Position numbers and translations under genes: made by a program
The notes under the pieces: generated by a model
What the model saw: only the letters and a program-made list of their open reading frames with translations
The model's database searches: none
Told to the model about the DNA's origin: nothing
Shown here: one piece after another, positions 2,708 through 29,693 of the stretch
Position numbering within the stretch: position 1 is the stretch's first letter
Layout of the letters: every line of letters begins with the position of its first letter
Origin: Novakomyces olei
Taxonomy: Eukaryota; Ascomycota; Novakomycetes; Novakomycetales; Novakomycetaceae
Direction of reading: 5' to 3'
Assembly (NCBI GenBank): GCA_016906335.1
Contig: JADEYG010000008.1
Location: 1 to 29,693 of the forward strand
DNA length: 29,693 bases

Positions 2708-2820
2708 GTCGGTGGCAGCGGCAGCAAACGCGGCCAAACCGTCGGGAACGCCATGCCTTAAATTCGCGCTCGTTATCGCTGCCACTCGTAAATCTCTAGC
2801 CAATCAACATATACAGCGTA

Positions 2821-2834
2821 TAGGGTTAGGGTTA
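2821..2834 (+). repeat. Internal telomere-like motif
   Basis: TAGGGTTAGGGTTA, two TTAGGG-type repeats in the promoter of the maltase gene. Such teloboxes are bound by TTAGGG-binding factors (Tbf1/Tay1 kind) in yeasts; use here is not shown. Confidence 0.6.
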
Positions 2835-2971
2835 AATGTTTTCAATATTCGGTAAAACCGCAATTGTTTCCCGATATAGTCTCGGCCATCGCAGAATATA
2901 TGAGCGATAAGGCGCGAAGGGCGGTGCCCACGCAGCGCTGATTGCACCTGTCAAAAACCAGCCAGGCTAAT

Positions 2972-3010
2972 GTGAGATAACGTATCTCACGTCAGCCGAG
3001 TGCTGACGTG
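2972..3010. promoter_or_regulatory. Two abutting perfect palindromes, operator-like
   Basis: GTGAGATA-acg-TATCTCAC occupies 2972-2990 (8-base arms). CACGTCAGC-cgagt-GCTGACGTG occupies 2988-3010 (9-base arms). They share the triplet CAC. The first contains GATAA-type half-sites and the second TGACGTG, a bZIP/CRE-like core. They lie midway between the divergent maltase and transporter genes. Confidence 0.6.
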
Positions 3011-3280
3011 TACAAAGCGTCTCTATCTCGCGGCGCACATTCGAATGGCGTATGCCCACTTATCGCGCGCGACACACCTGGCCAATCGCGTTCCATCGGC
3101 ATTGCCGATGAAGCACCGGGTTCTCTTATCCACACGTTATCAGGAGAAAATAATGGGGAGATAAGAGTACTTGCAGGAGAAAATTCAACATGACAGGTGA
3201 ACTGCGCGCGGCTTTAAATTGACGAGCAAAGACCGCATTGTACGACAACTTTTAGAGATCGCTATACCTTTTATTACAAA

Positions 3281-5363
3281 ATGTCTACTTCAACAGCTGA
3301 CGAAATTTCCGGCACTGCTCTTGGGCAAAGTTTTTCTTCGGAAAAGAAAAAGCCCGAAGTCGAAGACGAGCAGGCCAAGGCCAACGTAGTCTACGGCACC
3401 GTCCATGTTGCCGACGAGTCTGAACTCTCGTACTTTGAACGCAAAGCCGCATTGATCAATGAGTGAGTGTTCCAATCTTGGTTCAAAATTTTACCAGCTT
3501 TTTTGGCCAGAGTTATTATTCTTTTTTATTTTTTTTTCCTTAGCCTTCAATCAAGCCGAACCTTTGATTCTTGAAATATTGTCTATGTCTATTCCTATCG
3601 AAGCTTTCGGCTAACATGTATAGCGAGCTCGACAAATTCGGGTTTGGCAGGTACCAGCAATGCATTTGGCTGCTCTGCGGATTTGGGTATTTTTTAGATC
3701 TTGCCTGGTCACAGGGCGTTGGCCTCATGGCAACGGCCGTATTGTAAGAAAACCGTTGTTAGCTTTTACTTACGCATTTGAAAGCCAGGAAATGAACGTT
3801 CCGGCTGGCCGGCAAGGCCTCATCTTCACCTGCGCAAATGCCGGACTAGCGTATGTTAACCCTAACCCTCGATTAAAAATCTTAACAGTATTAGGATTGG
3901 TGCCTTTTTCACAGGTATTCTCACAGACATTGTCGGGCGCAGATGGGCTTTCAACATTACGTGCCTCATTACTTCCGTATTTGGCATGCTTCTTGTAAGT
4001 TTATACCCAAACCAATTTGAACAACTTGCTAACTTTTTCAAGGCTGCCAGTAAATTCAACTATGGAGCTATTTGCGGCATTTATTTCTTGTCCTCTATCG
4101 GTCTTGGTGGAAACATTCCTATTGACGCTACAATCGCCCTTGAATTTATGCCACCTAGCCGCCGGTACTTGGTATCCCTGCTGAGCATGTGGCAGCCAAT
4201 TGGCGTCGTTGTTGCTTCGGCTATTGCTTACGGCACGGCTGCCCGGTACCGATGCGGGGCCGATCTGCCTTCTTGTCGGGCTGTGAGCGAAGGCGAAGCT
4301 TGCTGCTCTGTCGCCAGCAACATGGGATGGAGATATATGGTTATTGTGATTGGTGCAATGACTCTCTTCATTTTTTTTGCTCGCTTCCTAATTTTCCGAT
4401 TTTACGAGTCGCCAAAGTTTCTTGTAAGCAAAGGCCGCGAGCAAGAGGCAATCGACGTTTTGCACAAAATCGCTAAATTCAATCGTGCACCGGCTCCTAC
4501 TCTCACTATGGAACATTTCTACGAAATTGATCGCGCAATGGGTATTGACCGTAATGCCCTTAAAGCCACAGTTGATGCCAAGGGAGCTTTTACGCGCGCC
4601 GTGAACGACATCAAGTTTCTTAAGGGTCTTTTTGAAACGAAAATGACGTGTTTTCTTTTCGTTCTTCTCGCTTTCACCTATATGGTAAGACTTGATTTAG
4701 TTTCCACGCCTTTTTACAAACGTTGTGATTCACGTTTAAATTAATATTAAATCCAAAATTTGCTCTTATAATGGTCGTTATTATTATATTTTTGTTTAGC
4801 TTTATTATACTAACATCCCAGGGCAACTACTGGTCCTTTAATTTGGCCGGGTCTTTCCTTCCAATTATTCTGCTTCGCAATAACGTGAGCTCAGGCGCTA
4901 CAACTGTCACTGAAACGTATCGTGAATATGTGTATATTTACTTGCCCGGAATTATTGGTGCAATTATCGCTCTTTTCTTGTTCAGCTGCCTTTGATTGGG
5001 AGAAAATGGTCGCTCGTTATTTCTGCTGCTTTACAGGGTCTGGCAATGGCCATGTACACACAAGTGAAAACTACGGCAGGCTACGTAGGGCTCAACGCTT
5101 TCGAGTACATTATGCAGACTTATTTTAACGCTGTACTTTACGCATCGGCACCGGAGCTTTTCGATACGCCATACCGTGCCAGTGCTAGCGGTATGTTGTC
5201 CTGCCTTGGCCGAATTGCCGGGATTGTGGCGCCTCTGGCAGGACAGCGATACATTGGACAAGGCAGCCAGGGAGTCTTGTGGCTCGGTGCTGGCGGTATT
5301 TGGCTGTCCAGTATTCTCATGGTATTTTTGCCCATCGAGATGCGAAACAGACAGATGTATTAA
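3281..5363 (+). CDS. Major facilitator transporter (sugar/SV2-like), six exons, one apparent frameshift
   Basis: Predicted exons: 3281-3462, 3624-3743, 3785-3850, 3895-3994, 4043-4684 and 4822-5363, giving about 550 aa. Donors GTGAGT, GTAAGA, GTATGT, GTAAGT and GTAAGA pair with acceptors mostly preceded by CTAAC-like branch sites. The joins restore family text such as DELDKFGFGRYQQCIWLLCG, ANAGLAIGAFFTGILTDIVG and GNYWSFNLAGSFLPI. MFS marks are visible: D-x2-GRRW in loop 2-3, ESPKFL after TM6, and RASASGMLSCLGRIAG in TM10-11. The family (fungal MFS proteins resembling SV2/sugar porters) is a 12-TM plasma-membrane group of mostly unknown substrate; neighbour maltase suggests a sugar, by inference. 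Intron 3 acceptor was set at 3894 because it gives LAIGAF. Near 4983 the frame changes: upstream reads IIALFLF, downstream PLIGRKWSLVIS. One base appears to be missing in a short C run. This is either an assembly error or a recent pseudogene. Confidence 0.85.
3856..3869 (-). repeat. Telomere-like motif inside intron 3 of the transporter
   Basis: TTAACCCTAACCCT begins right after the GTATGT donor of the short third intron (3851-3894). It is the C-strand orientation of the TTAGGG-like repeat. Confidence 0.6.
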
Positions 5364-5902
5364 GGCTGTGCTTATAATCTTGTTCAAACGCTTTTACAGT
5401 AGATATAATAAAGAATTTTTTGATTTAGCGTAATTAATTGAAATTGTGTAGATTGGTAAACCTTGTAAATTTTTTATATATAAACAATTACATGATTGTG
5501 TAATCTTGATCAAGCGAGTCGAAAGACTGCTAAATAATTGGAATATGTTCAAAAAACAATTAATAGTAAATGAAAACTGCTCTAAAAAATATAAAATTAT
5601 AAAATAGCCGCACAAATGATCTTGAGTAATTGGTACAAATAACAGTTTTGTTCATTGGGCAACTCAAGCTTAGAGGTAGCAAAGACTTTTATGACTTTAG
5701 GTGAAAAAAATCGCATGTCCCTTACACAAGAATTCCAGCTAATTAAAAAATAAACACGATGCACCGATGAAAATATTACCATAATCAAATAACAAAGTAA
5801 AAGAACTGGTGATAATATATAGTCAAATATACAAACATGTTTCCCACATTCAAACCATTAGCCATAAGCAAGAACATAAAAGCAAATACGCAGACGGAAA
5901 TT
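5364..5902. other. AT-rich convergent intergenic region
   Basis: About 540 bases between the 3' ends of the transporter and the minus-strand regulator. It is AT-rich, with short chance open frames only. No gene or RNA was recognised; both genes would end their transcripts here. Confidence 0.5.
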
Positions 5903-8686
5903 TTACGCGGGTCGTGCATTGTCAAATAAACTTGACCAATCAATCGGCTCTAAGCCTGCCTGTTGCCACATATCCCACATATCGCCTCCCAGACTAGCAT
6001 GTAATTGCTCACTTAAATTGGCGGCGTCACCAGCTGAAAGAGCTCCTGCATCGATACTGCCTTCTTGGGTATGAGCGCTTTCTGACACTATTGTATTCAT
6101 CATCTCGTGTAGAAGCGGAACATAGCGGCGGGCCAGATGACCCTGAGGAGGACTAGCGGCTTCAAGCGTACAAGCAGCCAGCTTTACCAGCTTGTAAAGA
6201 AGACTTGTTTCGGGTTGCTGTCCAGGTGTCGATAGTTGGGTATATTTTAAAAGATTCACTGCAACGATTAGTTTGAAAAGCAACCAATTAAAAAAGCACA
6301 AATACGGATATTGAATATAAGAATTAAAATTAAACAAAATATAAACTGAACTTAACATTAAAAAACAAAATAACTATTATAATAACCAATATTGAAATTG
6401 AACAAAGCAATGAATAAACAGGCCGAGGTCAAACTTACGGTCAATGTACTTTCTGAGCCAACTGTTCAAAAGGAAAAAAGCCGCGTATGTTATAACCACA
6501 AGTAGTGATCGATAGCAAACGACATCACACTGATCACTTTGGGATCAGGTTCCAGTCGAATATCATCAGAGGGCAAAACCATCTTTCCACCAAGTGTGGG
6601 TCGTGATAAGTGCAAAAGAATTTGACGAGCCCAATCCACAGCCCACATTAAAGCCTGTTTGGTCCATTGGCTCTGATCAGTGTTACCGAGAAAAGTGCAA
6701 GTATATGAAAGCCGATACCATCGAAGCGAGGTGAAAGGAAAATGCTGGCTCATAGTATCTGATCTTTGATTATCTTGACAAGACGTGAAATTCCATTCAA
6801 CCTGCTGCACTTGCCTGTCAAACTCCTCAACGTCTCCGATGCTTGTTGGCCTGCAATTGGTGAGGTGAGTGAAATGGGCGACTTGAAACAAAGACGTCAA
6901 TCGTATGTCAGTGGTCTGCGTGAAACGACACCGGCTAAAATTTGCTAGAACCTCGCTAACCGAATTTGTGTTTAAAGAGCAAGGTCTCCTAGATGAAAGA
7001 GCAAGACTAAAGATAAAGATAACAGTCAGAAACGCTAAATAAAACAGATATGGTGACAAACTTTTAGAAAATAAAACCAAAAGAGTAAAAACAAATCACA
7101 AATAAAATAAAAACTAGATTGAATTAAATTAAAATTATCGATACTGAAAACAACAACATACTAATGGTCACTTTCTATAAGGTAGAGCATCGTCCGAAAC
7201 TTGCGAGCATCCATTCTGGCAACTATGTCAGGGTTTCGAAAGCTAGCACAGCAACTTTTTTCCAGTTCCAAAGATGTCGCCCACCGAATAGCCAGGCTCA
7301 AGTAATGCCAAGCACCGGCCTCGGAAAATCTCGAGCGAAACTTTTCGCGATCAATGCACACGTCAAGAGGCATCCAATGAGCGCACAGTATGAGGGCTTG
7401 CACGGTCTCAAGCATATGATCCTCCAGTCTTGGACGTAAAGTAATCCGCATTATTTCTGCATCCAGTAGACGAACTAGATCAGGGTATCGAGGGTGAAGC
7501 CAGCAAGAAGATCTGACTATTAGCAGTGAAATAATTAGCCATTTAATCGAAGCATACTTCGACGGAGCGCTCCAGAAGCGCGCACCAATACAGAGGATAG
7601 CGAGGAAAAGCAGCATACTCCTCCCACGGACACTATCAGCATTAAAATCGATCTCTTCGTCCAAAAAGGGAGCGTTAGGATGGCCGTAGGAAAAGAACCT
7701 GTTTAGTTTAGATTGGAATCATTGATATATAAAGAGAAGGAAACCAACTAAAATGTAATTAAAAGATAAGCAGAGCAAATATTACAGCTTGAACATGACT
7801 TGCGCCTCTGCATGCGTCAAAACGGATTGAGCAATAGGATCATCCATCTCAAACTCGAGAGGATCATCCGGCTGAAAACGGTGCAAAGTCCGGAGAGGCC
7901 CGTCCGTCATAACTGCACCCGAAGAGGCGGCAAATGTACTTGTCGACGCAGTCCGATTAATTCGGGGCGCGGGCCTTATCAAAAGCAATGGTCAGCAGAA
8001 ATAAATTTTTAAATATTTGCATTACGAGACTGGTATAGGGGGCAGATAGTCCTGCTGCCGTGAACTGGGCGCTATATTGTTCCCGAAAGATTGCTTGTTC
8101 GTGAATCCCGAGTCTGACTCGGTGGAAATCGGGCTCGGCCGCCCAACGTGCTGTGATAATTCCAGCCTTTTCTCCAATTCACCAACCCTATTCGCATTAG
8201 TCAGCCGCGAGCCATTAATAGTCTAACCGTTGAGCAAGCAGTTGAACCTGCCTGGGCAAATCTCCATCACCGTTTGCGATTGGCTGCTGCGACGCATCGA
8301 CTTTTATCCGGCCAGACCAATTGCCGTCTTCACTTGCGGCCATTTGTGGCATTTGTGGGGCCATAGTCCCTTCCACCGTGCGGAGAAGGCCTCCGTGACA
8401 GGTACTGCCTTCTTCAACTGGCGTCGATTTTGGCAGGTTCATATGGGCAAACGGACTGTGCCGCAAGTCCATCACCTCGTTCTGAAAGCTGCACTGCACC
8501 CTGCGCGCCATACAAGGCCGGCAGATAATACTAGTCGTGAAGCCACCGCACTTTTGTTTTCTTTATAAAGTCAGGTCTTTCTGTGCTATTGGAACAATCT
8601 CACCTCTGCCGACACTGCGCACACGAATGTATCGTGCGGCCCGACGGTAGCGAATATGGGACCCGACGCGATTCCCGAGGAGGCAT
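5903..8686 (-). CDS. Zn2Cys6 transcription factor, eight exons, one apparent frameshift
   Basis: Predicted exons in order: 8604-8686, 8228-8560, 8026-8187, 7786-7974, 7558-7698, 7162-7512, 6439-7006 and 5903-6258, giving about 727 aa. Splicing exon 1 to 2 rebuilds a perfect zinc cluster: CAQC, RQRKQK, C, then nine residues, CRPC, six residues, C. The third exon supplies a coiled-coil linker (VGELEKRLEL). The middle homology region follows: FFSYGHPNAPFLDEEIDF, then LHPRYPDLVRLLDAE, TVQALILCAHWMP, AGAWHYLSLAIRWATSLELE and ESDHYLALSSRRPCS, the pattern of the fungal_trans domain. The C-terminus is acidic/aromatic (GGDMWDMWQQAG, DWSSLF), like an activation region. Introns carry GTGAG/GTTAGA/GTAAT/GTATG/GTAAGT donors and CTGAC, CTAAAC or CTAATC branch-like sites; the 45-base intron at 7513-7557 is optional because it is in frame. 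Near 6496 one base seems missing, where DHYLW changes frame into VITYAAFFLLNSWLRKYID. Likely nuclear; target genes unknown, with the adjacent transporter and maltase as obvious candidates. Confidence 0.85.
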
Positions 8687-14210: not shown

Positions 14211-14985
14211 TGAGCGTCAAGATTGGGCCTGCTGGAATTAGATGGTCCTCTCCTGAACAATAGTACGACCGCATCAAAAGCTATAATGCTGCTTTAGCAC
14301 CATAGACTTCAGACAAGGCAGCGAGGTGAGAAATCCAACATTTGCCAGCTGTGCAAAGCAAAAATTTGATCCACGGCCTAGTTCTACGATCCTATAATGC
14401 GCCGATCCGCCCAACACATATAGATCCTTTGCAGAGTTGAGTTTTACAAGTCAGTAAATTAGCTTGAATGTCACCTAAATCTGAATCTATAGTTTTCTAT
14501 CTAAATCACCAAATGTAGATCACCTGTTATACTATGAAAACAACAAAGAACAAAGTGAGCAAAAAACAAGTATTACTTAAGAACAAAGACAAGCCTTATC
14601 ACAAGGAGCAAAGTGTCGTCCTTGTCCAAGGTCAGTATAGGAAGTAAGCAGCATTCTCTTTGGGTACGTATATTATACATTGTTAGGACCCAACCCAATA
14701 TTTGATTTAAAAACCCAGCTATCCAGGCCTTATCGAAATGGAACAAGGTAGCAGCGGCGCTATTGCAAATAGCGAAGCTATAGATAACGGCGTCTTGAAG
14801 CATTTATGTTTCAAAGCACTGAGATTAATATACTATGGGCGAATGGTCCCTATTATAGACACGAGTGTCGAGCAAATGCATCTCTCTTCCCTTCCATACA
14901 TATATTAGAAAATAGAACCCCCTGATCAATGGGGGTACCCACATACACACACAAGAAATACTAAACAAACTAAGCTTGTACAAAC
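14211..14985. other. No gene recognised
   Basis: Upstream flank of the regulator relic. Short open frames on the minus strand (14573-14803 and 14825-15007) show no family features I recognise. Confidence 0.3.
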
Positions 14986-16359: not shown

Positions 16360-17890
16360 ATGGACTCTATGGGGCACCCTGGTGCTTACTACAGGCGGAC
16401 TGACACTGGTAGCTGTGTCGCGAGTCTGATTAAAGGCAATGGATCTGGGGAAAAGAGTTCAGCCGCAGCTGGGGAAACGTATCCCGTGACAGACTGGGAT
16501 AGTGGTATTGTTGCATGGGATAGTCAAGATGATCCGGAAAACCCGCAGAATTTCAAAATGTGGCGCAAAGTACTGAATCTGGCTTTGCTTGTGGCGGCAA
16601 CGTTTTGCTCGCCGTTTGCGTCGAGCTCATTTCGCCCGGCGCAGGCGATGCTATGAGAGATTTTCACAACAATTCTGATATCTTGAGAGCGTTTATCGTG
16701 AGCGTCTACATCTTGGGCTATGCTGTGGGGCCGTTGGTTATTGCGCCTCTATCAGAGCTGTATGGGCGCTGGATCGTCCTTTCCGTGTGTAATTCCATGT
16801 TCACCGTCTTTCAGATTGGATGTGCGTTGGCCCCAACGTCACTGGTATGGCGTTTTGTCGCCTATTGACAGGTATCGGCGGCTCTGCTTGTATAACGTGT
16901 GGTGGAGGCATCGTCAGCGATATGTTTGGGCGCCACGAGCGTGGCCGCGTCATGGCTATCTACTCCTTTGGGCCCGTACTCGGGCCCTCCATCGGCCCTA
17001 TTGCGGGGGGTTCATTTCTACCAGAATTGGCTGGAGATGGGGGTTTTGGATATTACTGATTGCCGGCTTTACCATAACCACGCTCAATGTTTGTTTCCTC
17101 AAGGAAACAAATGCAATGGTTTTGCTTGAGCGCAAGACCAAGCGCTTGCGGCGCGAGACAAAACGGGACAATCTTGTCAATTATTATGTGCAAAAAAATT
17201 CTGCTATATCTCCCCAGCGCAAATTCAAACAGGCACTTCTGATGCCCATCAAGATATTAATGCAGCCGGTTGTTACGGCAGCCGCGTTGCATCTCGCTTT
17301 GTCTACGGACTTTTTACCTCCTTCTGACCTCCTTGTCTGAAATTTTCATCGAAAACTATCACTGAAATTAACATCGCGAATCTCTGCTTCGTTCCGCTTA
17401 TGCTCGGCTTCATTCTCGGCGGAGTGTTGTTGTAGCGTTTTCAGATGCATATTGCCGGAGATTGGCTCGCATCAATGGACACTTCCGTCCTGAATATAGA
17501 CTCTTGTTTCTCATCTATAGCGAATTTACATTGCCGATAGGGTTCATTTGGTATGGGTGGACTGCATACAAAAAAGTGTTTTGGATTGTTCCTATGATCG
17601 GACTAGTACCTGTGGGCTACGGCACGCTGACTGCATTTGTCAGTACTCAGATGTATATAGTAGACGCTGTCCCGGCGTATGCTAGTAGTGGTTTGCGGCA
17701 ATCACAGTCACCCGCAGCCTTTTTGGTGCCCTTTTACCTCTTTGCGGTCACAAAATGTACCAATCTTTGTCATACGGCTGGGCCAGCACCAATGCTAGGT
17801 CTGATTGCGCTTATTCTTTCGGCTACGCCTTATGCATTTGCAATTTTTTTAAGGAGGCATGATGCAACATTGGTCGAAAATGGTATTTGA
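16360..17890 (+). pseudogene. Broken DHA1-type multidrug/polyamine transporter (MFS)
   Basis: The predicted product resembles drug:H+ antiporters of the FLU1/TPO/CYHR kind, 12-TM plasma-membrane exporters. Start MDSMGHPGAYY, then the family signature ENPQNFKMWRKVLNL before TM1, SVYILGYAVGPLVIAPLSEL (motif of TM2), GRW-type loop 2-3, FQIGCALAPTSLVWRF (TM3), LLTGIGGSACITCGGGIVSD (TM4), GRVMAIYSFGPVLGPSIGPI (the antiporter motif C region, TM5), then WRWGFWILLIAG and FLKET. The C-terminal half carries EFTLPIGFIWYGWT, MYIVDAVPAYASSGL and LGLIALILSATPYAF. Length, about 1.5 kb, is normal, but the pieces are in different frames with some six or more breaks. It shares a promoter with the hydrolase relic, so the two may once have formed a catabolic or detoxification pair. 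Confidence 0.82.
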
Positions 17891-19300
17891 AGGAGCAATT
17901 CGGGTTCCTCAGCTAGAAATGCTAGTGGGGTTACCAGAGAAAGCTAATCAAACCATTTTACAGGTTGCAATATGAACACTAGATACAGAAAATACTGGCG
18001 CAGCGAGCCCAATTATCCCGAATTCTGATAGACGTGATCAAAGCTTGGCTCCCGGAAACTACCAGCATTATTCTGACGGGGGCACGCTTAAATGAATACG
18101 TCTTTAGAATATTAATTATATGCTGGCGCTAATGCAATAGTTCATGTCTTTCCTTTCTCATCTGCGCTGTAAGCTGCCCTTGAGAGACGTCATGAGTCTG
18201 AAGGCCACACTCATGTGAAAACATGTTGGCTTCTGCCATCACTAGTTGCCATATGGTCATGATAAAGAAGCGGGAATAGGCGCTACTATTCTGCATAAGA
18301 GTCACTACGAATGGCATCAGGGATTACAACGGGCAAGCTTGTAGCGGGATCATACTGGCGCGATTGTTTGGCTGTGAGCATTGACTAGATAGATCAAAGA
18401 TGGACTGCATCTTTGATCATGCTTGATTGCCCTTGGCTTTTTGCTTGTCCCGACCTTCTAAAATAACTTCAGACCAGGAAAAGAATCACAAGGTATTCGG
18501 TTTCTGCCGCCCTTATTCGCTCCGTCTACCTTCGGATAAAGCTTCCGAGCTCGTAAATACTCAGACAATTCGTTGTTGAGTAGTCACTTATTACCCTCGA
18601 GGGCCATGAAAGCATTATTTAATCGATTCCTGTGGGTCACATATTTTCGTTTTGCTTGCCTGGTAGAACCGCTGAACAAGTAGACAAAAGCGGAAATATA
18701 GCAAGAACGAGAGACGGGGAAGCGGGGTAAAAACCCAATTTGTCAATTACTCCTTTTATGTAACCGGAAGTTGGTCAGACTGCCCAAACTATATCACTCT
18801 GGAAGGATTTTGTCAAAGTTAGATGTGTAGACGAAGAAATGTATAAGATGCTCCTGAGGACGCGATTATGCTCCTCGATTCGTGTCATGCTGCTGTTCTA
18901 TGTGTCTTGCAACGACGACTATTCATTCTCAAGTTCGATCTGTGTAGACAAGCGTTGACTTAATTGGTATGGCCTGTCAACCATCGCTCCGTGCTATGAT
19001 TTTTTTGGTAGCATAGCCAAGGAAAGGTTGAGTAAAGAAGGTAAAAATAATTTAGACCTCTATTTCCATCGTCCATGTAGAAAAAATTATCTCCAATTCA
19101 CCGTTTCGTCTACTTTTGAGGCTCAAGGGTTGGCTTGTCCCAGCGGGACGGTTTACACTCAGCAATAAGATTTTCCAGCTTCTCCCTAATCCTTCGCACC
19201 ACAAACTCAAAATTGACGCTCTTTCTATTCATCGATATTTCGTCGGGTCGGCTACCTTTTAACGTGAACTTTTCCAGTTTAATATATGGGCAATGTACTA
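17891..19300. other. No gene recognised; one strong hairpin
   Basis: About 1.4 kb with only short open frames. A minus-strand frame at 18129-18317 (NSSAYSRFFIMTIWQLVM) looks mildly coding but I cannot assign it. A perfect 11-base inverted repeat with a 5-base loop lies at 18392-18418. A minus frame at 19110-19361 is charged and unassigned. Confidence 0.3.
18392..18418. repeat. Perfect 11-base inverted repeat
   Basis: GATCAAAGATG-gactg-CATCTTTGATC. No flanking T-run or promoter context shows what it does. Confidence 0.6.
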
Positions 19301-19309
19301 GTGCGTTCT

Positions 19310-19328
19310 GACATTTCGCCGAAATATC
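19310..19328. repeat. Palindrome copy GACATTTCGCCGAAATATC
   Basis: A 19-base near-palindrome of the same type as those in the inverted repeats at 19390 and 25894, lying 62 bases outside the left one. Confidence 0.6.
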
Positions 19329-19389
19329 AGTTATAGGGTTTTCTTGATTTTTAGACTGCAATTATTATACAAAACAATATATACTAACT

Positions 19390-19426
19390 GACATTTCGTC
19401 GAAATGTCGCTAGTAATAATAACTAG
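19390..19426 (+). repeat. Left arm of a 37-base inverted repeat bounding 6.5 kb
   Basis: Begins with the perfect palindrome GACATTTCGTCGAAATGTC (19390-19408) and continues GCTAGTAATAATAACTAG. It matches the reverse complement of 25876-25912 at 33 of 37 positions. The matching tail runs inward on both sides, as in terminal inverted repeats. It lies 168 bases upstream of the HNH gene start. Confidence 0.7.
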
Positions 19427-19593
19427 GATCCTACGTTTAGTGCAGCGTCACGTCCTAAGGATCAAAAGTAATAATGCTGGATCTTATTTAGAGCCAATAT
19501 GTTAAAATATTTACAAAAATCAATATGCGATTATGAAATTTTGACCTTGGCTTCACCCTCGACGAACCCTGGCCAAAACTGTGGACTCTGGGG

Positions 19594-20382
19594 ATGAAGA
19601 GCAATACAAGCGAGCTAAGTGCGATAAGCTGGGGCGCTGAGGGGATTGCAACCCTTGTTTCAAAAGATGGAGCCACAATAGCGGCGGTTCCGATTCAGTT
19701 CACAAATGCAGACCCTCATCCCGTCAACACAGCAGCTTACCTGTACGATGTTGCGCGGCGGTTGATATCCAACTTTAAAGTGGAGGATATCATTCAGCGG
19801 GGTGGGAGCACCGTTAACCCCGCAAGATCCGCTTACTTCTGGCATATACGCGGTGGATATGCTATTAACAATATGAACATCGTCCCGTCCACAGGAAGTC
19901 GTACCACAAACGATTTTCTGATGCGGATAGTTCATCAACTGTCAGCCGGTCGTCGCGTTCGTCTCAAGCGCAGACGTACTTTCGCGAGGATCTTCTTTTG
20001 CGTGATGGACGTTGCGTCTTCACAGAAGCCAGAGGGCGTACCGCTGTTGTTGCGTGCCACATGTTCCCTACAGTCTCGGCGACACGTACCTTTCGGAAAT
20101 ACTGGGAAACCAACAGTTCTCTGGTATTTACTCTTCTTCGAACGGACTGCTCATGAGGAGGGATATCCATTTCTGTTACGACAGATATCTCCTAGGGTTC
20201 TATCGGATTGCGCCAATGTATACGTTATTCATTCCTTTGGGACGGGCTACCGTGAACTTCACGGAAAAATCGTGGATTTTAACATCGAGCCCGGCGATCC
20301 TTCTATACCACCTAATGAAACACTCATGGCTTGGCACTATTCTCAATGTCTTATGGCAAGGATGCGTCCGTTTGTGGTTTAA
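19594..20382 (+). pseudogene. HNH_2-type nuclease gene, frame broken
   Basis: Fungal proteins with an HNH_2 domain have a poorly conserved N-terminal half, then a Cys/His/Asn-His metal-nuclease fold, then a helical tail. Here the tail is the clearest single-frame match (NETLMAWHYSQCLMARM, the family's 'LLRWHFRQ.VL.NM' block). The nuclease core is split between two frames: RDGRCVFTEARGRTAVVACH, then SGIYSSSNGLLMRRDIHFCY and DRYLLGF, giving the C, H, N and D-x-H elements of the fold. The N-terminal third (ADPHPVNTAAYLYDVARRL) is coding-like. Length, 262 codons, is a little short for the family. At least two frame changes cross the core. Substrate and role of these fungal HNH proteins are not established. 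The gene starts just inside the left inverted repeat and points inward. Confidence 0.65.
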
Positions 20383-20561
20383 TGAGCGGGTGCGATTCGT
20401 GCTTCGACCCTGTTGGACAATTCAACAGTATATTCTCATCCCAGGGCTCACTATTATGAGGAAGCTTTATGTTTTTAATGAAGCCTGGGTTTATGGGTAT
20501 TCTACCCTATGTCTTATAATCGAAGACTGTGTAATCTTCTAGGGTTTCAAATGACCCTGCG

Positions 20562-21502
20562 GTGGGCTCTTTGGCCAAATTTTCGCCAATTTTTGATGCA
20601 GGTTTGTCGCTGCGCAGATTAAAAGGCATGCCGACAAGCTGCTTATCCGGCTGCAAGTTCGGCATGTACGTCCTACTGAAAGAGCCATTCATGTGGGCTG
20701 CTGGGTACTGAGCTTCTTATTGGTGACGGGGCACGATTGCCTCACAACTACTCTGCTGCTCCCGCTTGTGTCAAAGACTCAGACATCAGCGCGCGCAGGT
20801 CGCCGCCCTCCCTGTATGCCAACAGCAGCTTTTATGCCGATGTGCTGTTTTGTGCAGTAATGCGATCAGTGCCGGAACCACATCAACGCTCGCCGTAAAG
20901 TCATAATATCAGATGCGATTCTGCAGCGCCCTGCACGACCCATACTTTCATACTCTGCGCGTGGACTCTGTTACGCGAGCAATCAGCATAGACAGCGAAG
21001 CAGTAGCGCTTTTCATTGGTGTAAATTAACATTCTCCCAGATAGCAGATGATTTATGGGATTTTGGTACAGTGCGTAATGGAAACACTGCACAAAGTCCC
21101 GTAAAGCCTACACCTGCCCTTGAACTTGATGATGAGTTGGATCCTACAGTGCTGCAACACCTGCAGATTTCCGAGAATACCACAATCAAGCCTGCACGCA
21201 CCGAGCCGCCAAAAGCTACCGACGCTTTAAATAGGACAATGACGGTTACTGGCTTGAATAAGGGAAAAGATACCAATGAAAGTAAACCTAAAGTTGCTGA
21301 ACAGACAAGTGACGACTGGCTATCGCTGTCAGAATCAACTTTTCATTTAGATAAGCGCGACCGTCTGCTCGAGACACTAAAGCGCCTGCGGCAAAGTGAG
21401 GACGCAAAAGTTTTGCACGCTGCTCAATTGCTTGCTGATGCCATAACTGCAAGTGAAAAGGAGTGCCCCGATATTTTAACGCGTTTGCTCCACGATGTAT
21501 AG
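20562..21502 (+). pseudogene. Uncharacterised coding remnant with helical C-terminus
   Basis: I do not recognise this protein. The most solid part is an open frame from 20861 to the stop at 21500-21502. It includes AFHWCKLTFSQIADDLWDFG and a linker rich in T, P and K. Then follows an amphipathic, coiled-coil-prone C-terminus (DKRDRLLETLKRLRQSEDAK, LLADAITASEKECPDILTRL). Upstream, coding-like text continues in other frames (SLYANSSFYADVLFCAVMRS at about 20813-20872; SALHDPYFHTLRVDSVTRAI at about 20924-20983), so a spliced or decayed gene of about 900 bases is likely. There is no clear ATG. It lies between the HNH relic and an AT-rich spacer. Confidence 0.4.
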
Positions 21503-22186
21503 AGAGGTTCAACATCCAGGTGAGATTGTGGCCTTTTTATCGAGATTTATGTTCCATTCGCCTGTGATTATTTGTAGTTTGTTCAAGAGTGGATTGTAGA
21601 ACGTGGAGGTTTTGACGAGATCAATTTGGCCGTTTGCACGCCGTCTCACCGTATTAGTTGAAATCTTTATGGCCAAACTGTAATAGATTACATAACGTAT
21701 CAAAATGTGCAAGCTCAATCGTGCAGTCATCGAAGCGATTACTAAACAAGCACAACAAGTGTCTCATGAGCACCTTGCATTATTTGGACAACAAAAGATT
21801 TCGTCTCTTGATTTTGGTAGGCAAAGTAACGATGCCGTCTCACGTGCGCAACCTTCATGGATAAACTGTAAAACTCGTGCATAAACGAAAATATTAATAG
21901 TTTAAAAAGATGCATTCTATCGTGTTCATTGCAGACTGTTGGATTGCAGACTGTTGGAAATAATCAAAATAATACTAAGGATTGATCTACGTTTAGTGAT
22001 TTAAATAGAAAACTATATAAGTACAGGTAGCACCTAGATTCAAATTTAGATGGCATTCAAGCTAATTCACTGCTTATAAAACACAACTTTCCAACACAAA
22101 CTAATAGGATGCAACACGCTTTAAATACGTGCAAATAACTGCATGGCCTCTACTCGAAACTGTAATTTGAATGTCAAATAATCCAT
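21503..22186. other. AT-rich spacer, nothing recognised
   Basis: About 680 bases with only short open frames and no clear motifs. Confidence 0.4.
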
Positions 22187-23030
22187 TCATGCACACATGC
22201 TGTAATTAATTACCAAGCCCATGCTAACAAGCAATTCATATTTACGCGTGACAGGCAACCTTGCTTCCATTAATTTTGGATACCACAGGTTTGTTTGTGG
22301 AAGAGCGTTTTTATGAGAGGAATTCTGGTCTACAGCCATGCTTTCAGCTGCTGTGCCGATGAGCAGCTTTTTGTTATTGAGCAACATGGTTTGGTCGAAT
22401 TGTTGGAGAGCTCGGAATAGCCATAATTTAATCCTTCATATTGACTCAAAGCACTTGGGATGTAAGTGCATACATCACATGGCGGCTGTTTCCTGTATCA
22501 AGGTTCCAGGCACCAATGTTTTGCCTCGCGCTATGCGCATAAGAATCGGGTATGAGATAAAAGTTGCCTTCCTTGTCCCAGCCTCATAAATCAGCCAGTC
22601 CACCTGAACAGTGGCAGGTCAAAACGATGGACGGAAGCCGGCACTCGAACGCAACCCACTCATACTTATTTCTTTCGGCTAAAGCCACATTCCAGCCAAC
22701 ACGCCATTCCAACAAATAATACTGTATCAGTCACGACTTCCCCTTACTTCGACATATTTCTTGCCAGCTATCGTCGCCATGTCACCGCCACTGCCACAGC
22801 TATTTCTATATTACTCCAGCGCTCATACAGTCCCTTCGCCACTGGTGCTGCCATGCGACGGAGTTGGAATCGCCAGCAATAACTGGAATTGTGGAGGCAG
22901 GAACTCCGTCAAAAATATTACTTGATTTCTGTCCGTTCAATACGCGAGGCTCTTGAATGCTCATGATGGGTTGTATCGCTATTGGTGAACTAATGGAATC
23001 AAAATAAAACGCCAACAATATGCTAAACAA
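22187..23030 (-). pseudogene. Uncharacterised decayed gene
   Basis: On the minus strand, coding-like pieces follow one another in different frames: SIQEPRVLNGQKSSNIFDGV near 22970-22910, WVAFECRLPSIVLTC near 22660-22610, a hydrophilic stretch DKEGNFYLIPDSYAHSARQN near 22585-22520, and KKLLIGTAAESMAVDQNSSH near 22370-22310, ending at the stop at 22187-22189. A plausible intron end (CCATTAG) precedes the first piece. I cannot name the family. Like its neighbours it is interrupted by several frame changes. Confidence 0.35.
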
Positions 23031-23127
23031 AATGCAATTTAAATATGCTCAATAATATGCCATAACTATGCCAGACTTTAAAGCCTGGACGAAAATGAAA
23101 GGGTATTATACATCACTGGCCCCCGGC

Positions 23128-25816
23128 CTACTTGACCCTTCTTGCCTTTTTCTTCGGGACTCCCTGGCCTTCATGAATTTCTTCGTCCTCCTGACCACCC
23201 TGATTCCCATGGTCTCTACGATTTTCATATTCTCTCTGGAATTTATAGCTGCCATAGGCTTCGTGCCTCTCTGTCCCCATGGATCTCGTAACCTCAGTGA
23301 CCTCCGTGGCCCTTCTGGCTTCCCTGCCTCCTGGCCTCCCTGGCTGACCTGATTGACCTGGCCTCCCTGGAGTTCACCGCCTCCTTGGACCCCTTTCGTT
23401 GCAGATTTTCCAGCCGCTCCACTTCGCTGCTCAATATATTGAGAATTTTGTCATACAATTCTTCACCTTGTTCGATACGTACGCCTCTTGAATCTTTCAT
23501 GAACAATGCAATGCGAAGCTTTTCCATGCATCCCATCAAAGGCTTATGGTCATTAGTGAAATTTTCCGACATTTCGCGCATAAAAATATCGGATTCTCAA
23601 CGATTTTTGATTTATACGCCGAGACCTTTGACATACTGGCATAGTTCCAATCATCATACGGAGAATTCTGATTAATAGGCTGTCCATTTTGGAAATAGTG
23701 AGTCAAAATCCAGTAAGCCACCCAAAAGTGCGACTCAATGTCGTGCATCATGGTATGATCTTCTCCGTCTAGTAAAGGTATCGCCATAAACGGCCTCGTT
23801 CCTGTTCTCTCCATCGCGCCTGACAGACCAGCTTGGCTGATCCTGATCGCAAACTCAAGATCAATAAGAAATGCCGCCGAGACCCTGGATTTTCAGACCC
23901 CTCATTCATCATCAAGTTCCCGATCGAAATGTCCCGGTGCAGAATATCATTCTTCACAAGCGACCGGTGGCCCTCAAGACATCCCATTATCCCTTTCAGT
24001 AGCTCTATGTGTGAACTTGCCTTGTACAATGGCTTCCCGTAGTCCAACACAACGACTCGTCGATGGACTCGGTTTTTGATTTTCGCATCCAAAGAATCAA
24101 TCTGCTTTGCTGGCGACGACTCTCCGGACCTCTCCTCCGCATTCTCCTCTATATTCCATAATGGAGATTTCGCTGACCGAGTACTGCTTCGCCGCATGTC
24201 AAGTGCTGAAGTGCCCGATCCGGTCGATCCTCTCGACCATCTTGCTCCAAGATCCGGAATTGCCTTTTTAGAGCTCCGGTCATGTCTAATCCATTCCGCA
24301 CATTGCTCATAAGATCGTCTTCCTTGCCATCAATGTGAACCACCTCATGGTGATAATATCGCGAAATATTCTCGACACCACGAGTACCCGCTAGCTTAAG
24401 CAGCTCCCCTTCTTCCCTTCGCTCCGGCTCCTGCCACGAGTCTTGATCACTCTGACTGCGCTCTTATCCCTTCTCGGTGCGCCAGCCTACCGTCGTGCCT
24501 CTGCACGCAATTCCGCTCGAAGTCTTCAACACTTTGTCAATTATAAGTCGCTCACGCGTCCGCCCTAGTTTAATATCGATATATCTATCTTTCTCTTACT
24601 GACAATTGTCGGATCGTAACCCAGCTCTTTCTCTCCCATCGTAAGGAAAAACAGCATCACGTAGACTATCAGGCCTGTTGCTTTGTTGATGTCGAATGCT
24701 TTTGATGCTATCGCCCCACATCGATCATATTTCCACACCCTCATCGACGAGTCGCAAAGCGTAAATCCCAAAACATATCGACGGTTATCCTGCGCTCGAA
24801 ATATTTCCTTTATATACTTTGCAAGGCCAAGCCATGCTTGTGCAGGGCTATCGGCCTTACGACTGCTTTTTAGCTCTCCCACAACCAAGACGTTGTTCCA
24901 TTGTTTATCAGCATTTCGCTTTATGAAGAAAATGTCAGGTTTGCGTGCGAACTTTCCAGGGAGAGGTTTATTCGCCGCAGACATTGTAGTTCGCCGCACC
25001 TCTGTGCCTTTAATTCGCTTGTAAATGTTGCTTATTTGCGTTACAAAACTCTTGAGCCAATCTAGCACCGCTGCCTCCTTCGCTGATTTGGGCCAATCCT
25101 TCAATTTACCGTTTTTGAAGAGTAAGTTTCTTGGTTTGCCTCTTAACCACTCTCGCCGATAGTTTATTGAGCGATTTTTTCTGAGTGGACAAAATATCCT
25201 CCACCTCAAAGTTGATATAGAAAAATTTAAGTTCAGCTTTGATTGCTCTTCGACCTCTATTGATCGTTCGCTAGAATTGTACGCAATAGAATTATATTGA
25301 GTGGCGTCCCAGGAGCTTGTTTTGGTGGCTCTTCCTTCGTTTGGCTTTGAGCTTGCCTTAATCGCTCGACCTTCCTTTGGCTTTCCGCTACAACATCGTT
25401 CAGTTTCTCCCAAATCTCTAAGTCGTTATCATGTTTAAATGCAGCCGTCAGGACTGGGGCAATGTCATGATAGTAAAGCCGGATATCAGAGGCAATGTCG
25501 TTAACTAGTTCACTTATAGCAGGTTGAACATCCTCCGCCACAGCACTCAACTGCGGAAGCAAGATTCTAGCCAGCCTAAAATAGTCTATAGATGTTAGGC
25601 ATAAAGAAAAATCGACGAGACCCAATCGTTACCTTTTTCATGGAGCAAAAGGGCATTATACTGTCCTGAAGGGTCTCTATAGCCTGCTTTGTCAATCCGA
25701 CGTAAACTTTCGTAAAAGTAATATAAATGCGGTGTAAAGGGATTATCGTTAAGCATTCGTCGAATTCCATCGTTTATCTCGACCGCACCGGGCTCTGGCC
25801 TTAAAGGTTCCGCCAT
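23128..25816 (-). pseudogene. FunK1 fungal-type protein kinase gene, frame broken
   Basis: FunK1 kinases are a fungal family of eukaryotic-type kinases, often amplified, of unknown role. From the ATG at 25816 the product begins MAEPLRPEPGAVEINDGIRR, as in the family. An intron at about 25593-25639 (donor GTAACG, branch CTAAC, acceptor TAG) joins LLLHEK to DYFRLARILLPQLSA. The N-terminal domain follows: KPDIFFIKRN, VLVVGELKSS, EIFRAQDNRRYVLGFTLCDS, ELGYDPTI. The kinase domain follows: ACRGTT (glycine-loop region), KDSWQEPERREEGELLK-like text, YYHHEV, RVHRRVVVLDYGKPLY, catalytic loop ILHRDISIGNLM, FLIDLEFAIRI in the DFG position, TGTRPFMAIPLLDGEDHTMM and HDIESHFWVAYWILTHYF. The tail is long, charged and repetitive, to TAG at 23128-23130. 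About 2.7 kb in all, a normal length. Some five frame changes separate the pieces, yet catalytic residues are kept, so decay is recent or part of the damage is assembly error. Confidence 0.85.
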
Positions 25817-25875
25817 CGCCGCTGCGGTCAAGGTGGGAACGCGACTCGAGCCAATGAATGCATGTTGGATATACA

Positions 25876-25912
25876 CTAGCTATTATTAGTAGTGACATTT
25901 CGACGAAAAGTC
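25876..25912 (-). repeat. Right arm of the 37-base inverted repeat
   Basis: Reverse complement of the arm at 19390-19426 with four mismatches. It contains GACATTTCGACGAAAAGTC (25894-25912), then TAATAATAGCTAG inward. It lies 60 bases upstream of the FunK1 start codon, mirroring the HNH side. Confidence 0.7.
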
Positions 25913-25984
25913 GTATTATTGCATAGAATGCTTCTTGTTTGTGAAAAGATATATTAAAGATTATTTCTGCCAGCATTTATAACA

Positions 25985-26022
25985 GTTAGTGTTAGGGTTA
26001 TGTAACTAACCCTAACCCTAAC
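25985..26022. repeat. Head-to-head telomeric motifs (fusion-like scar)
   Basis: GTTAGTGTTAGGGTTA (25985-26000) is followed after six bases by TAACCCTAACCCTAAC (26007-26022). The G-rich strand points right and is met by the C-rich strand, the order expected where two chromosome ends were joined. It marks the border between gene relics and the repeated subtelomere. Confidence 0.7.
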
Positions 26023-26053
26023 TTATTCTGGCTTACTAGATATATTCAAACCG

Positions 26054-26386
26054 GAATTATGGCGAAATTCCATTTTTATGTAATGTGATTCTTATTATGT
26101 ATAATTCTAGTCAGGGTTTTCGCTTTTCCTTTACGCCATAATTCCATTTCGAAAAATAATTAATGTATGAGGGGGGTCATGCCAATTTCCTTAGCATTCC
26201 CGCGAATTATGGCGTAATTCTAATAAGAATGGTAGGAGAAACGTGGAGGCAGGGTTTTTTAGGGAGAATTTTCCGACTAAATTCCAAATTATAATATGGG
26301 AAATTGCGCGGGAATGCTAAGGAAATTGGCATAAACGGGGGTAAGAACGACGTAAGAGCAAAAATAGTTTCCGCCTTAATTCCAAA
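26054..26386. repeat. Foldback (MITE-like) element in unit 1
   Basis: Contains a perfect 26-base inverted repeat, ATGCCAATTTCCTTAGCATT and six more bases at 26179-26204, against 26307-26332. Outer arms GGAATTATGGCGAAA (26054) and TTTCCGCCTTAATTCC (near 26368) are also inverted copies. The whole could fold into a long cruciform. It is non-coding; with no transposase seen, a miniature element is one reading and a structured subtelomeric site another. Confidence 0.65.
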
Positions 26387-26759
26387 ACATTGGCAAACCA
26401 TATTGCGGCGAGGGTAGGGTTGCTGAATTTATAAAATATAATTATTATACAAGATGGTCTACACATATTATAGCTATCTGATAATATAATAAAAATATTA
26501 TAGAGAGAGCCCCATAGTAATAAAGTATAATAAGAAAAACGTCAGAAAAATAAGAAAAATTAAGAGTGTGTAGTCCATGTGTAGAGGTGACAAAACGTCG
26601 AATGAACAAGTGTTTTTACAAAAAGTGTATGGTTGGATAGAGGGGTGCAGTAGGAGTGTAAATATATACTTGTTTACAAGATTGGATTAGTAATTATGGA
26701 GATATATGGGTTTAAAGATTTATAAAAAGCTCATGACGGCGCAGGATGCATTTTATGTG

Positions 26760-27400
26760 GCATTATAATAATGTATAGTAGAATAATTTATTGTAAAGCA
26801 ATGTATGTATAATAATGTATAGTATAATAATGTATGGTAATTTAATGTATAGGAATAATGTATGTATAATAATGTATGGTATAATAATGTATGGTATAAT
26901 AATATATGGTAGAATAATGTATTGTAAAGTTATTGTAAAGTAATGTATGTATAATAATGTATGGAGGAATAATGTATGGAGGAATAATGTATGTATAATA
27001 ATGTGTGGTATAATAATATATGGTAAAATAATGTATTGTAAAGTGAATAATGTATGTATAATAATGTATGGTATAATAATGTATTGTAAAGTAAAGTATG
27101 TATAATAATGTATGGTAAATAATATATGGTAGAATAATGTATTGTAAAGTTATTGTAAAGTAATGTATGTATAATATATATGTAGAATCATATGTAAATA
27201 ATATATGGCATTATAATGTATGGTATAATAATATATGGTGGAATAATGTATGGAGGAATAATGTATGTATAATAATGTATGGTATAATAATATATGGGGG
27301 ATTAATGTATGGAATAATGTATGGGAATTAATGTATGGGGGATTAATGTATGGAGATAATGTGTATGGGGGAATAATGTATGGGGAATAATGTACGGTGA
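26760..27400 (+). repeat. AT-rich minisatellite, unit 1
   Basis: Degenerate tandem array built on TATAATAATGTATGG with variants (AGAATAATGTATTG, GGAATAATGTATGG). Long open frames across it are repeat artefacts. Confidence 0.9.
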
Positions 27401-27763
27401 TATTTATTTAGGGTTAGGGTTATTTATGATCGAATGGAGTAGAGAATTATATTGAGATTGTTGGATATGAAAGGGAGGGAGAGAGTTGGAGTTGAGATAG
27501 GAAGTAAAGGGAAATAGAAAATGGGAATAGAGTAATGTAGAAGTTGCCAAAAAAATGTTTGATAAAGGACAGTTATTGAAAGGAAGATTGTTTTAATATT
27601 ATTTAGTATTTTATAATATTTGGTTAAAGTTTAGAAAGGATCAAATAAAAATGATGATGTAAAAGTTTTAAAAGGGCGGAAAATGTGAATAATAATAGAT
27701 TGAAGGGGTGTGAGGGGATGTGGAAAAGTGATGGAGATGTTAGGCCTAGATATATTCAAGACG

Positions 27764-28096
27764 GAATTATGGCGAAATTCCATTTTATGTAATGTGATTC
27801 TTATTATGTATAATTCTAGTCAGGGTTTTCGCTTTTCCTTTACGCCACAATTCCATTTCGAAAAATAATTAATGTATGAGGGGGGGGTCATGCCAATTTC
27901 CTTAGCATTCCCGCGAATTATGGCGTAATTCTAATAAGAATGGTAGGAGAAACGTGGAGGCAGGGTTTTTTAGGGAGAATTTTCCGACTAAATTCCAAAT
28001 TATAATATGGGAAATTGCGCGGGAATGCTAAGGAAATTGGCATAAACGGGGGTAAGAACGACGTAAGAGCAAAAATAGTTTCCGCCTTAATTCCAA
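27764..28096. repeat. Foldback element in unit 2
   Basis: Same structure as in unit 1, with the 26-base arms at 27890-27915 and 28018-28043, both still perfect. Confidence 0.65.
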
Positions 28097-28464
28097 AACA
28101 TTGGCCATATTGCGGCGAGGGTAGGGTTGCTGAATTTATAAAATATAATTATTATACAAGATGGTCTACACATATTATAGCTATCTGATAATATAATAAA
28201 AATATTATAGAGAGAGCCCCATAGTAATAAAGTATAATAAGAAAAACGTGAGAAAAATAAGAAAAATTAAGAGTGTGTAGTCCATGTGTAGAGGTGACAA
28301 AACGTCGAATGAACAAGTGTTTTTACAAAAAGTGTATGGTTGGATAGAGGGGAGCCGTAGGAGTGTAAATATATATTGTTTACAAGATTGGATTAGTAAT
28401 TATGGAGATATATGGGTTTAAAGATTTATAAAAAGCTCATGACGGCGCAGGATGCATTATGTGG

Positions 28465-29050
28465 CATTATAATAATGTATAGTAGAATAATTTATTGTAA
28501 AGCAATGTATGTATAATAATGTATAGTATAATAATGTATGGTAATTTAATGTATAGGAATAATGTATGTATAATAATGTATGGTATAATAATGTATGGAG
28601 GAATAATGTATGTATAATAATGTGTGGTATAATAATATATGGTAAAATAATGTATTGTAAAGTGAATAATGTATGTATAATAATGTATGGTATAATAATG
28701 TATTGTAAAGTGAATAATGTATGTATAATAATGTATGGTATAATAATGTATGGTAGAATAATATATGGCATTATAATGTATGGTATTATAATATATGGTA
28801 GAATAATGTATGGAGGATAATGTAAAGAGGAATAATGTATGTATAATAATGTATGGTATAATAATATATGGCATTATAATGTATTGTAAAGTAATGTATG
28901 TATAATAATGTATGGTATAATAATATATGGTAGAATAATGTATGGAGGAATAATGTATGGAAGAATAATGTATGGAAGAATAATGTATGGATGAATAATG
29001 TATGGGGATAATGTATGGTGTTAATATATAGTATTAATGTATGGGGGCAT
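28465..29050 (+). repeat. AT-rich minisatellite, unit 2
   Basis: Same TAATAATGTATGG-type array as in unit 1 with different copy number and order of variants, ending in G-richer variants (GGGGATAATGTATGG). Overlapping open frames on both strands here reflect the repeat. Confidence 0.9.
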
Positions 29051-29518
29051 AATATGAGAGTTGTTCAGTTAGGGTTAGGGTTATTTATTGGGATAATGTA
29101 TGGGGTATTATAATGTATGAGTTAGTTGTTTTATTAGGGTTAGGGTTATTTATCATGGAGTGGAGTAGAGAAATTTGTTGAGATTGTTGGATAAAGGAAA
29201 GGATGGAGAGAGTTGGAGTTGAGATGGGAAATAGAAGTAGAAAATGGGAATAGATTTATGTAGATTTTGGCAAAAAAAGGTTGAAAAAGGAGAGTAGTTG
29301 AAAGAAAGATTGTGATAATATTGTATAGTATGATATAGAATTGTATGTTAGATTATAAAGGGATCAAGCATAATTAAAGATATGAAAGATAAAAAAAGGC
29401 AGAGAATGAGAATAATAATTGATTGAAGTGGTGTGGGGGGATGGTGAAAAGAGATGGGAGATGAAGAAAGACAGATTTTGGAAGAGTTGAGGGAAGTATA
29501 TGGAAGTTGATGGAGATT

Positions 29519-29693
29519 GTCAGGGTTAGGGTTAGTCAGGGTTAGTTAGGGTTAGTTAGGTTAGGTTATGTCAGGGTTAGTGTTAGGGTTAGTTAGGGTT
29601 AGTTAGGGTTAGTTAGGGTTAGTCAGGGTTAGTCAGGGTTAGTTAGGGTTAGTTAGGGTTAGTTAGGGTTAGTTAGGGTTAGTTAGGGTTAGT
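29519..29693 (+). repeat. Terminal telomere, 10-base unit GGGTTAGTTA/GGGTTAGTCA
   Basis: The G-rich strand runs 5' to 3' to the end of the window, so this is a right-hand chromosome end. The distal part (from about 29587) is regular: three TTA units, two TCA units, five TTA units and a partial one. The proximal 65 bases are degenerate (TTAGGTTAGGTTATGTCAGG and the like). GGGTTAGTCA is the known Yarrowia lipolytica unit; GGGTTAGTTA differs by one base. Confidence 0.97.

What the first reader, a model, noticed from the sequence alone, without database searches (positions are those of the whole stretch)
19390..25912. A 6.5-kb block carrying an HNH nuclease gene and a FunK1 kinase gene is bounded by a 37-base inverted repeat
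The arms match at 33 of 37 positions in inverted orientation, begin with a 19-base palindrome and run inward. The HNH gene starts 168 bases inside the left arm and the FunK1 gene 60 bases inside the right arm, both pointing inward. This is what a mobile or once-mobile unit with a nuclease and a kinase would look like. The alternative is a shared palindromic promoter element placed upstream of both genes. No target-site duplication was seen, and the interior has decayed, so present mobility is unlikely.
Basis: partly seen in the sequence, partly recalled or inferred. Interest (0 to 1): 0.85.

Follow-up and report, generated by a model that had tools for sequence, protein, structure and literature searches.

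The report
Shared palindrome upstream of two genes
At the end of what looks like a fungal chromosome, two broken genes that point towards each other carry nearly the same short palindrome in front of their start codons, which looks more like a shared control switch than like the two ends of a jumping element.

Summary
Arms 19390-19426 and 25876-25912 match at 33 of 37 positions, inverted; the best of 100 shuffles was 28. HNH_2 and FunK1 domains lie inside, both genes point inward and both look broken. The element reading is weaker. A third copy of the 19-base palindrome lies outside the block at 19310-19328. No target-site duplication was found, and none of 39 interior reading frames scanned matched a transposase. 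The palindromic half of the arms carries no orientation; the inner 18 bases do, and match at 15 of 18. All three copies lie within 290 bases upstream of a start codon. The one other palindrome cluster found (2970-3112) lies between a divergent maltase and sugar-transporter pair. I favour a palindromic promoter element shared by two subtelomeric genes; the telomere repeat starts 3.6 kb beyond the right arm. A decayed element remains possible.

The parts
19310..19328 (.). Third copy of the palindrome (GACATTTCGNCGAAATGTC type), outside the reported block; one mismatch
   Evidence: neither flank matches the 18-base inner extension in ungapped comparison (5 to 8 of 18)
19390..19426 (+). Left arm: perfect 19-base palindrome 19390-19408 plus an 18-base AT-rich extension running inward
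19310..19408 (.). Two palindromes as an imperfect 99-base inverted repeat; arms 19310-19333 and 19385-19408 are 92% complementary
   Evidence: I3; self-BLAST E 3e-5, 71%
19594..20382 (+). HNH_2 nuclease gene, apparently broken: by eye its coding parts lie in three different frames
   Evidence: PF13391 E 3e-6 on frame 20006-20539, profile 28-65 of 66 only; frames; the frame that by eye holds the first half (19869-20153) gave no HNH_2 match of its own
20383..23105 (.). Interior between the two genes, no family above its curated cut-off in the frames scanned; holds one copy of a ~110-base dispersed repeat (21983-22094)
23106..25816 (-). FunK1 (Pkinase_fungal) gene, broken: kinase profile spread over four reading frames, the last three of which overlap in turn, so not explained by introns alone
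   Evidence: PF17667 pieces, profile 1-125, 176-234, 243-336, 330-386; frame coordinates
25876..25912 (-). Right arm: palindrome 25894-25912 (one mismatch) plus 18-base extension running inward; inner end 60 bases upstream of the FunK1 ATG

Best explanation
The arms are two copies of a promoter element: a 19-base palindrome (GACATTTCGNCGAAATGTC) bound by a symmetric, dimeric regulator, followed by an AT-rich stretch towards the gene. It lies upstream of two convergent subtelomeric genes, an HNH_2 nuclease gene (two palindromes, 80 bases apart) and a FunK1 kinase gene (one). The two genes would have been switched together. Both now look like pseudogenes. Shown: the palindromes, their positions, the domains, the kinase frame breaks, the telomere-type repeat. 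Inferred: binding by a dimer, co-regulation, and that the ATGs taken are the true starts.
For: Three copies within 3 mismatches, 0.01 expected, none elsewhere in 29.7 kb (the pattern is taken from the copies themselves, so the expectation flatters). Copies start 204 and 284 bases upstream of the HNH ATG, and one ends 78 bases upstream of the FunK1 ATG. The third copy is outside the block and lacks the extension in ungapped comparison, so the palindrome seems a unit of its own. Under one criterion 1-26030 has 7 palindromes, shuffle mean 2.2, maximum 7 in 60; clusters of two or more within 150 bases: two observed, in none of another 60 shuffles. The other cluster (2970-3112) lies between divergent maltase (ATG 2707) and sugar-transporter (ATG 3281) genes. 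No target-site duplication; no transposase-like domain in 39 frames.
Against: The 18-base extensions also match (15 of 18; 14 or more in 1 of 395,807 random pairs) with inverted polarity, more than a minimal binding site needs. Only two domain-bearing genes carry the element here, and both look broken. Of the 7 palindromes one lies inside a transporter-like frame (17090) and one between genes (18392); the total of 7 was reached by a shuffle. The right arm's palindrome does not pass that criterion because of its mismatch. The three palindromes of the maltase promoter do not resemble this motif (by eye). No regulator or expression data.
Confidence: 0.6

Rival explanations
1. The arms are terminal inverted repeats of a decayed DNA element that carried an HNH nuclease and a FunK1 kinase, moved by an enzyme supplied elsewhere or by a lost transposase.
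For: 33 of 37 inverted match, above all 100 shuffles; the inner 18 bases have inverted polarity; the block lies at a chromosome end. FunK1 genes are enriched in non-syntenic regions of Paracoccidioides (PMC3203195, passages), and the lineage-specific genome contributes to FunK1 expansion in Fusarium oxysporum (PMC6001611, passages).
Against: No target-site duplication; no transposase-like domain in 39 chosen interior frames; a third palindrome outside; GC content of the block within the range of its left flank.
Confidence: 0.2
2. Each site is a remnant of a short dispersed repeat: the 99-base structure at 19310-19408 is a small element with 24-base inverted ends, and the right arm is a lone end of another copy. 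Their position at the two genes is incidental.
For: 19310-19333 and 19385-19408 are 92% complementary, 51 bases apart; the whole 99 bases is an imperfect inverted repeat, E 3e-5. Another short dispersed repeat exists here (21983-22094 and 14429-14522).
Against: The left and right arms share 18 bases that lie outside the 99-base unit; the right site has no second palindrome within 3 mismatches.
Confidence: 0.12
3. Subtelomeric recombination copied the upstream region of one gene to the other (promoter capture), leaving only the most constrained part recognisable.
For: Upstream regions align at score 66, 0 of 300 shuffles as good, and the gapped alignment runs beyond the arm on both sides. The duplicated 1.7-kb unit next to the telomere suggests that this end recombines.
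Against: Without gaps the similarity stops at the arm: outer flanks match at 3 of 18, and the inner 40 bases at 20 of 40, of which 15 are in the first 18.
Confidence: 0.06

Closest known systems
Palindromic (dimeric-regulator) upstream sites of fungal genes
   Same: Symmetric 19-base site upstream of coding sequence, two copies before one of the genes; a second palindrome cluster sits between the maltase and transporter genes of this window
   Different: I can name no known site that it matches (recall only, no motif library was searched); it carries an 18-base AT-rich extension at two of three copies; no regulator known
Terminal inverted repeats of fungal DNA transposons
   Same: Inverted arms of 37 bases around a gene-bearing block
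   Different: No target-site duplication, no transposase in the frames scanned, an extra palindrome outside
FunK1 kinases (PF17667)
   Same: All four kinase pieces score above the family cut-off; FunK1 genes show lineage-specific expansions in non-syntenic regions (PMC3203195, passages)
   Different: Broken gene; [quoted passage not shown]
Crinkler (CRN) effectors with HNH_2 or kinase C-termini
   Same: HNH_2 occurs in two, and a kinase domain in another, of the CRN proteins of Plasmopara viticola (PMC8044898, passages)
   Different: The frames at either N-terminus (19537-20379, 25598-25879) gave no Pfam family at all at E up to 1

Membership tests
DNA transposon with terminal inverted repeats | Terminal inverted repeats beyond chance | tested here: met
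   33 of 37; best of 100 shuffles 28
DNA transposon with terminal inverted repeats | Target-site duplication | tested here: not met
   No duplication of 2-10 bases at the ends; longest shared word in the two 25-base end stretches is 3, where 4 is commonest among 3000 random pairs
DNA transposon with terminal inverted repeats | Transposase or remnant inside | tested here: not met
   39 chosen interior frames, no transposase family at E up to 1 (19 frames) or 0.1 (20 frames); not every frame was scanned
DNA transposon with terminal inverted repeats | Several copies, empty sites in sister strains | not testable with these tools
   No genome held; palindrome in 0 viral contigs and in 5 stretches of 257 Gb of prokaryotic genomes, against about 3.7 by my own estimate of chance
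Shared promoter element | Lies upstream, outside coding sequence, near start codons | tested here: met
   60 and 168 bases from arm to ATG; the ATGs were chosen by eye, not confirmed by transcripts
Shared promoter element | Motif recurs singly, independent of the block | tested here: inconclusive
   One further copy at 19310, but in the same upstream region
Shared promoter element | Recurs upstream of other genes genome-wide | not testable with these tools
   No genome held
FunK1 kinase (PF17667) | Family profile above curated cut-off | tested here: met
   59 to 126 bits, cut-off 24.1, in four frames
HNH_2 nuclease (PF13391) | Family profile above curated cut-off | tested here: met
   27.4 bits, cut-off 21; second half of the profile only

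The most novel reading that the evidence does not exclude
A subtelomeric two-gene unit, HNH nuclease plus FunK1 kinase, whose palindromic ends are both the promoter sites and the recognition sites of its own nuclease, so that it spreads as a nuclease-driven selfish or conflict module in fungi.
Probability: 0.04. Interest if true: 0.75.

Novelty: new member of a known kind. Interest (0 to 1): 0.25.

Why it matters
If the palindrome is a shared switch, it would tie a fungal HNH_2 gene and a FunK1 gene, both families of unclear function, to one regulator and give a handle on what they do. If it were an element end, FunK1 expansions in variable genome regions would gain a mobility mechanism. On the present evidence it is a modest finding.

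Tried and rejected
Search of the own genome: none is held. Palindrome in viral contigs: none. In prokaryotic genomes: 5 stretches, about chance, not followed. FunK1 relatives in viral contigs: 3 stretches matched a pattern, none encodes a relative. Rfam at gathering scores: nothing. Papers holding FunK1, HNH and transposon together: 0. Papers holding at least two of PF17667, PF13391, HNH_2, Pkinase_fungal, FunK1: 3, none of which pairs the FunK1/PF17667 terms with the HNH terms. FunK1 with kinase: 14 papers listed, of which I looked at passages of two, PMC3203195 and PMC6001611. Broader searches for FunK1 with nuclease and transposition words (25 of 1,709 listed) and with subtelomere, promoter-motif or inverted-repeat words (8 of 4,474 listed, none of the 8 holding FunK1) gave no lead that I followed beyond PMC3203195. 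The paper on the origin of crinkler effectors (PMC4857004; seen in the reference list of PMC9815663) is not held; one search lists 14 papers that hold its title words and 'crinkler'. Fungal NLR effectors: PMC9815663 has no occurrence of HNH, FunK1 or the two Pfam accessions. RIP-type mutation: no clear sign, TpA/ApT 0.65-0.92 and the second index 1.06-1.52 in the 12 stretches tested. Organism from the telomere repeat: the 10-base repeat TTAGTTAGGG with TTAGTCAGGG variants resembles that of Yarrowia lipolytica (PMC6746865 and PMC10100673, passages); by title and abstract start none of the 13 papers listed is about TTAGTTAGGG as a telomere repeat, nor did the listings settle it. A reading in which the 19310 copy serves a left-facing gene: the minus-strand frame 19113-19361 has no domain and the ungapped flank does not match the arms; a gapped alignment of that flank, palindrome included, with the HNH upstream region scores 49 (0 of 300 shuffles as good) and with the FunK1 upstream region 36 (5 of 300), so it is not excluded.

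Full report
What is there. The window looks like a fungal chromosome end: its last ~170 bases are a 10-base telomere-type repeat, preceded by a duplicated 1.7-kb unit (26036-27739 and 27746-29463, 86% identical) with a 15-base satellite inside each copy. The reported block ends about 120 bases before this. Arms 19390-19426 and 25876-25912 match at 33 of 37 positions inverted. In 7.5 kb around them none of 100 dinucleotide shuffles gave more than 28.

What the arms consist of. The outer 19 bases are a palindrome, so they match in both orientations and give no polarity. The inner 18 bases match between arms at 15 of 18, against 14 or more in 1 of 395,807 random pairs. So the arms are a real 37-base unit with polarity. 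A third copy of the palindrome, with one mismatch, lies at 19310-19328, outside the block. Its flanks match the 18-base extensions at only 5 to 8 of 18 without gaps. Together with the left palindrome it forms an imperfect 99-base inverted repeat.

The genes. HNH_2 scores 27.4 bits on one frame, covering only the second half of the profile. By eye, and from recall of such proteins, the first half and the C-terminal part lie in other frames, but the frame with the supposed first half gave no HNH_2 match on its own. FunK1 is spread over four frames; the last three overlap one another in turn while profile positions run on, so frame breaks rather than introns alone are needed. An open 1.9-kb maltase frame at 914-2803 speaks against a generally poor sequence. 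Both genes are therefore most likely pseudogenes. In 39 frames scanned inside the block (10, 9 of 10, 20) only HNH_2 and Pkinase_fungal reach their curated cut-offs; not every frame listed was scanned.

Element or promoter. Against an element: no target-site duplication, no transposase-like domain in those frames, and an extra palindrome outside. For a promoter element: arms 60 and 168 bases from two start codons, two copies in one upstream region, and the behaviour of palindromes in this window. Under one criterion 7 palindromes are found in 1-26030 (shuffle mean 2.2, maximum 7 in 60), and clusters of two or more within 150 bases occur twice, in none of another 60 shuffles; one cluster is the HNH upstream region, the other lies between the divergent maltase and transporter genes. 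The right arm's palindrome does not pass that criterion because of its mismatch. Two of the 7 are not in promoters (17090, 18392). The clusters were seen before the shuffle test was designed, so its weight is limited.

What could not be tested. None is held, and the collections that I searched are viral and prokaryotic. The choice between promoter and element therefore rests on one locus. I put the promoter element at 0.6, a decayed element at 0.2, a short dispersed repeat at 0.12 and promoter capture at 0.06.

Context from print. FunK1 genes are expanded and enriched in non-syntenic regions in Paracoccidioides (PMC3203195, passages), and the lineage-specific genome contributes to FunK1 expansion in Fusarium oxysporum (PMC6001611, passages). 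A broken FunK1 gene as the last recognised gene before a telomere fits this picture and needs no element of its own.

Noticed in passing
914-8600: Alpha-glucosidase (best solved match BaAG2), sugar transporter and a fungal transcription-factor domain side by side, like the MAL clusters of yeasts (recall).
   Followed up: partly
2970-3112: Three 21-23-base near-perfect palindromes within 143 bases between the divergent maltase and transporter genes.
   Followed up: partly
29525-29693: Telomere-type repeat of 10 bases, TTAGTTAGGG with some TTAGTCAGGG units, the latter being the Yarrowia lipolytica repeat.
   Followed up: partly
25984-26023: Telomere-like repeats facing each other (TTAGGG then CCCTAA) just outside the right arm.
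   Followed up: no
21983-22094 and 14429-14522: A ~110-base dispersed repeat in inverted orientation, 73% identical.
   Followed up: partly
26179-26204 and 26307-26332: Perfect 26-base inverted repeat in the subtelomeric unit, present also in the second copy of the unit.
   Followed up: no
16702-17890: An MFS-transporter-like frame (MFS_1 E 1e-5, below the family cut-off) that by eye continues in another frame, so possibly also broken.
   Followed up: no
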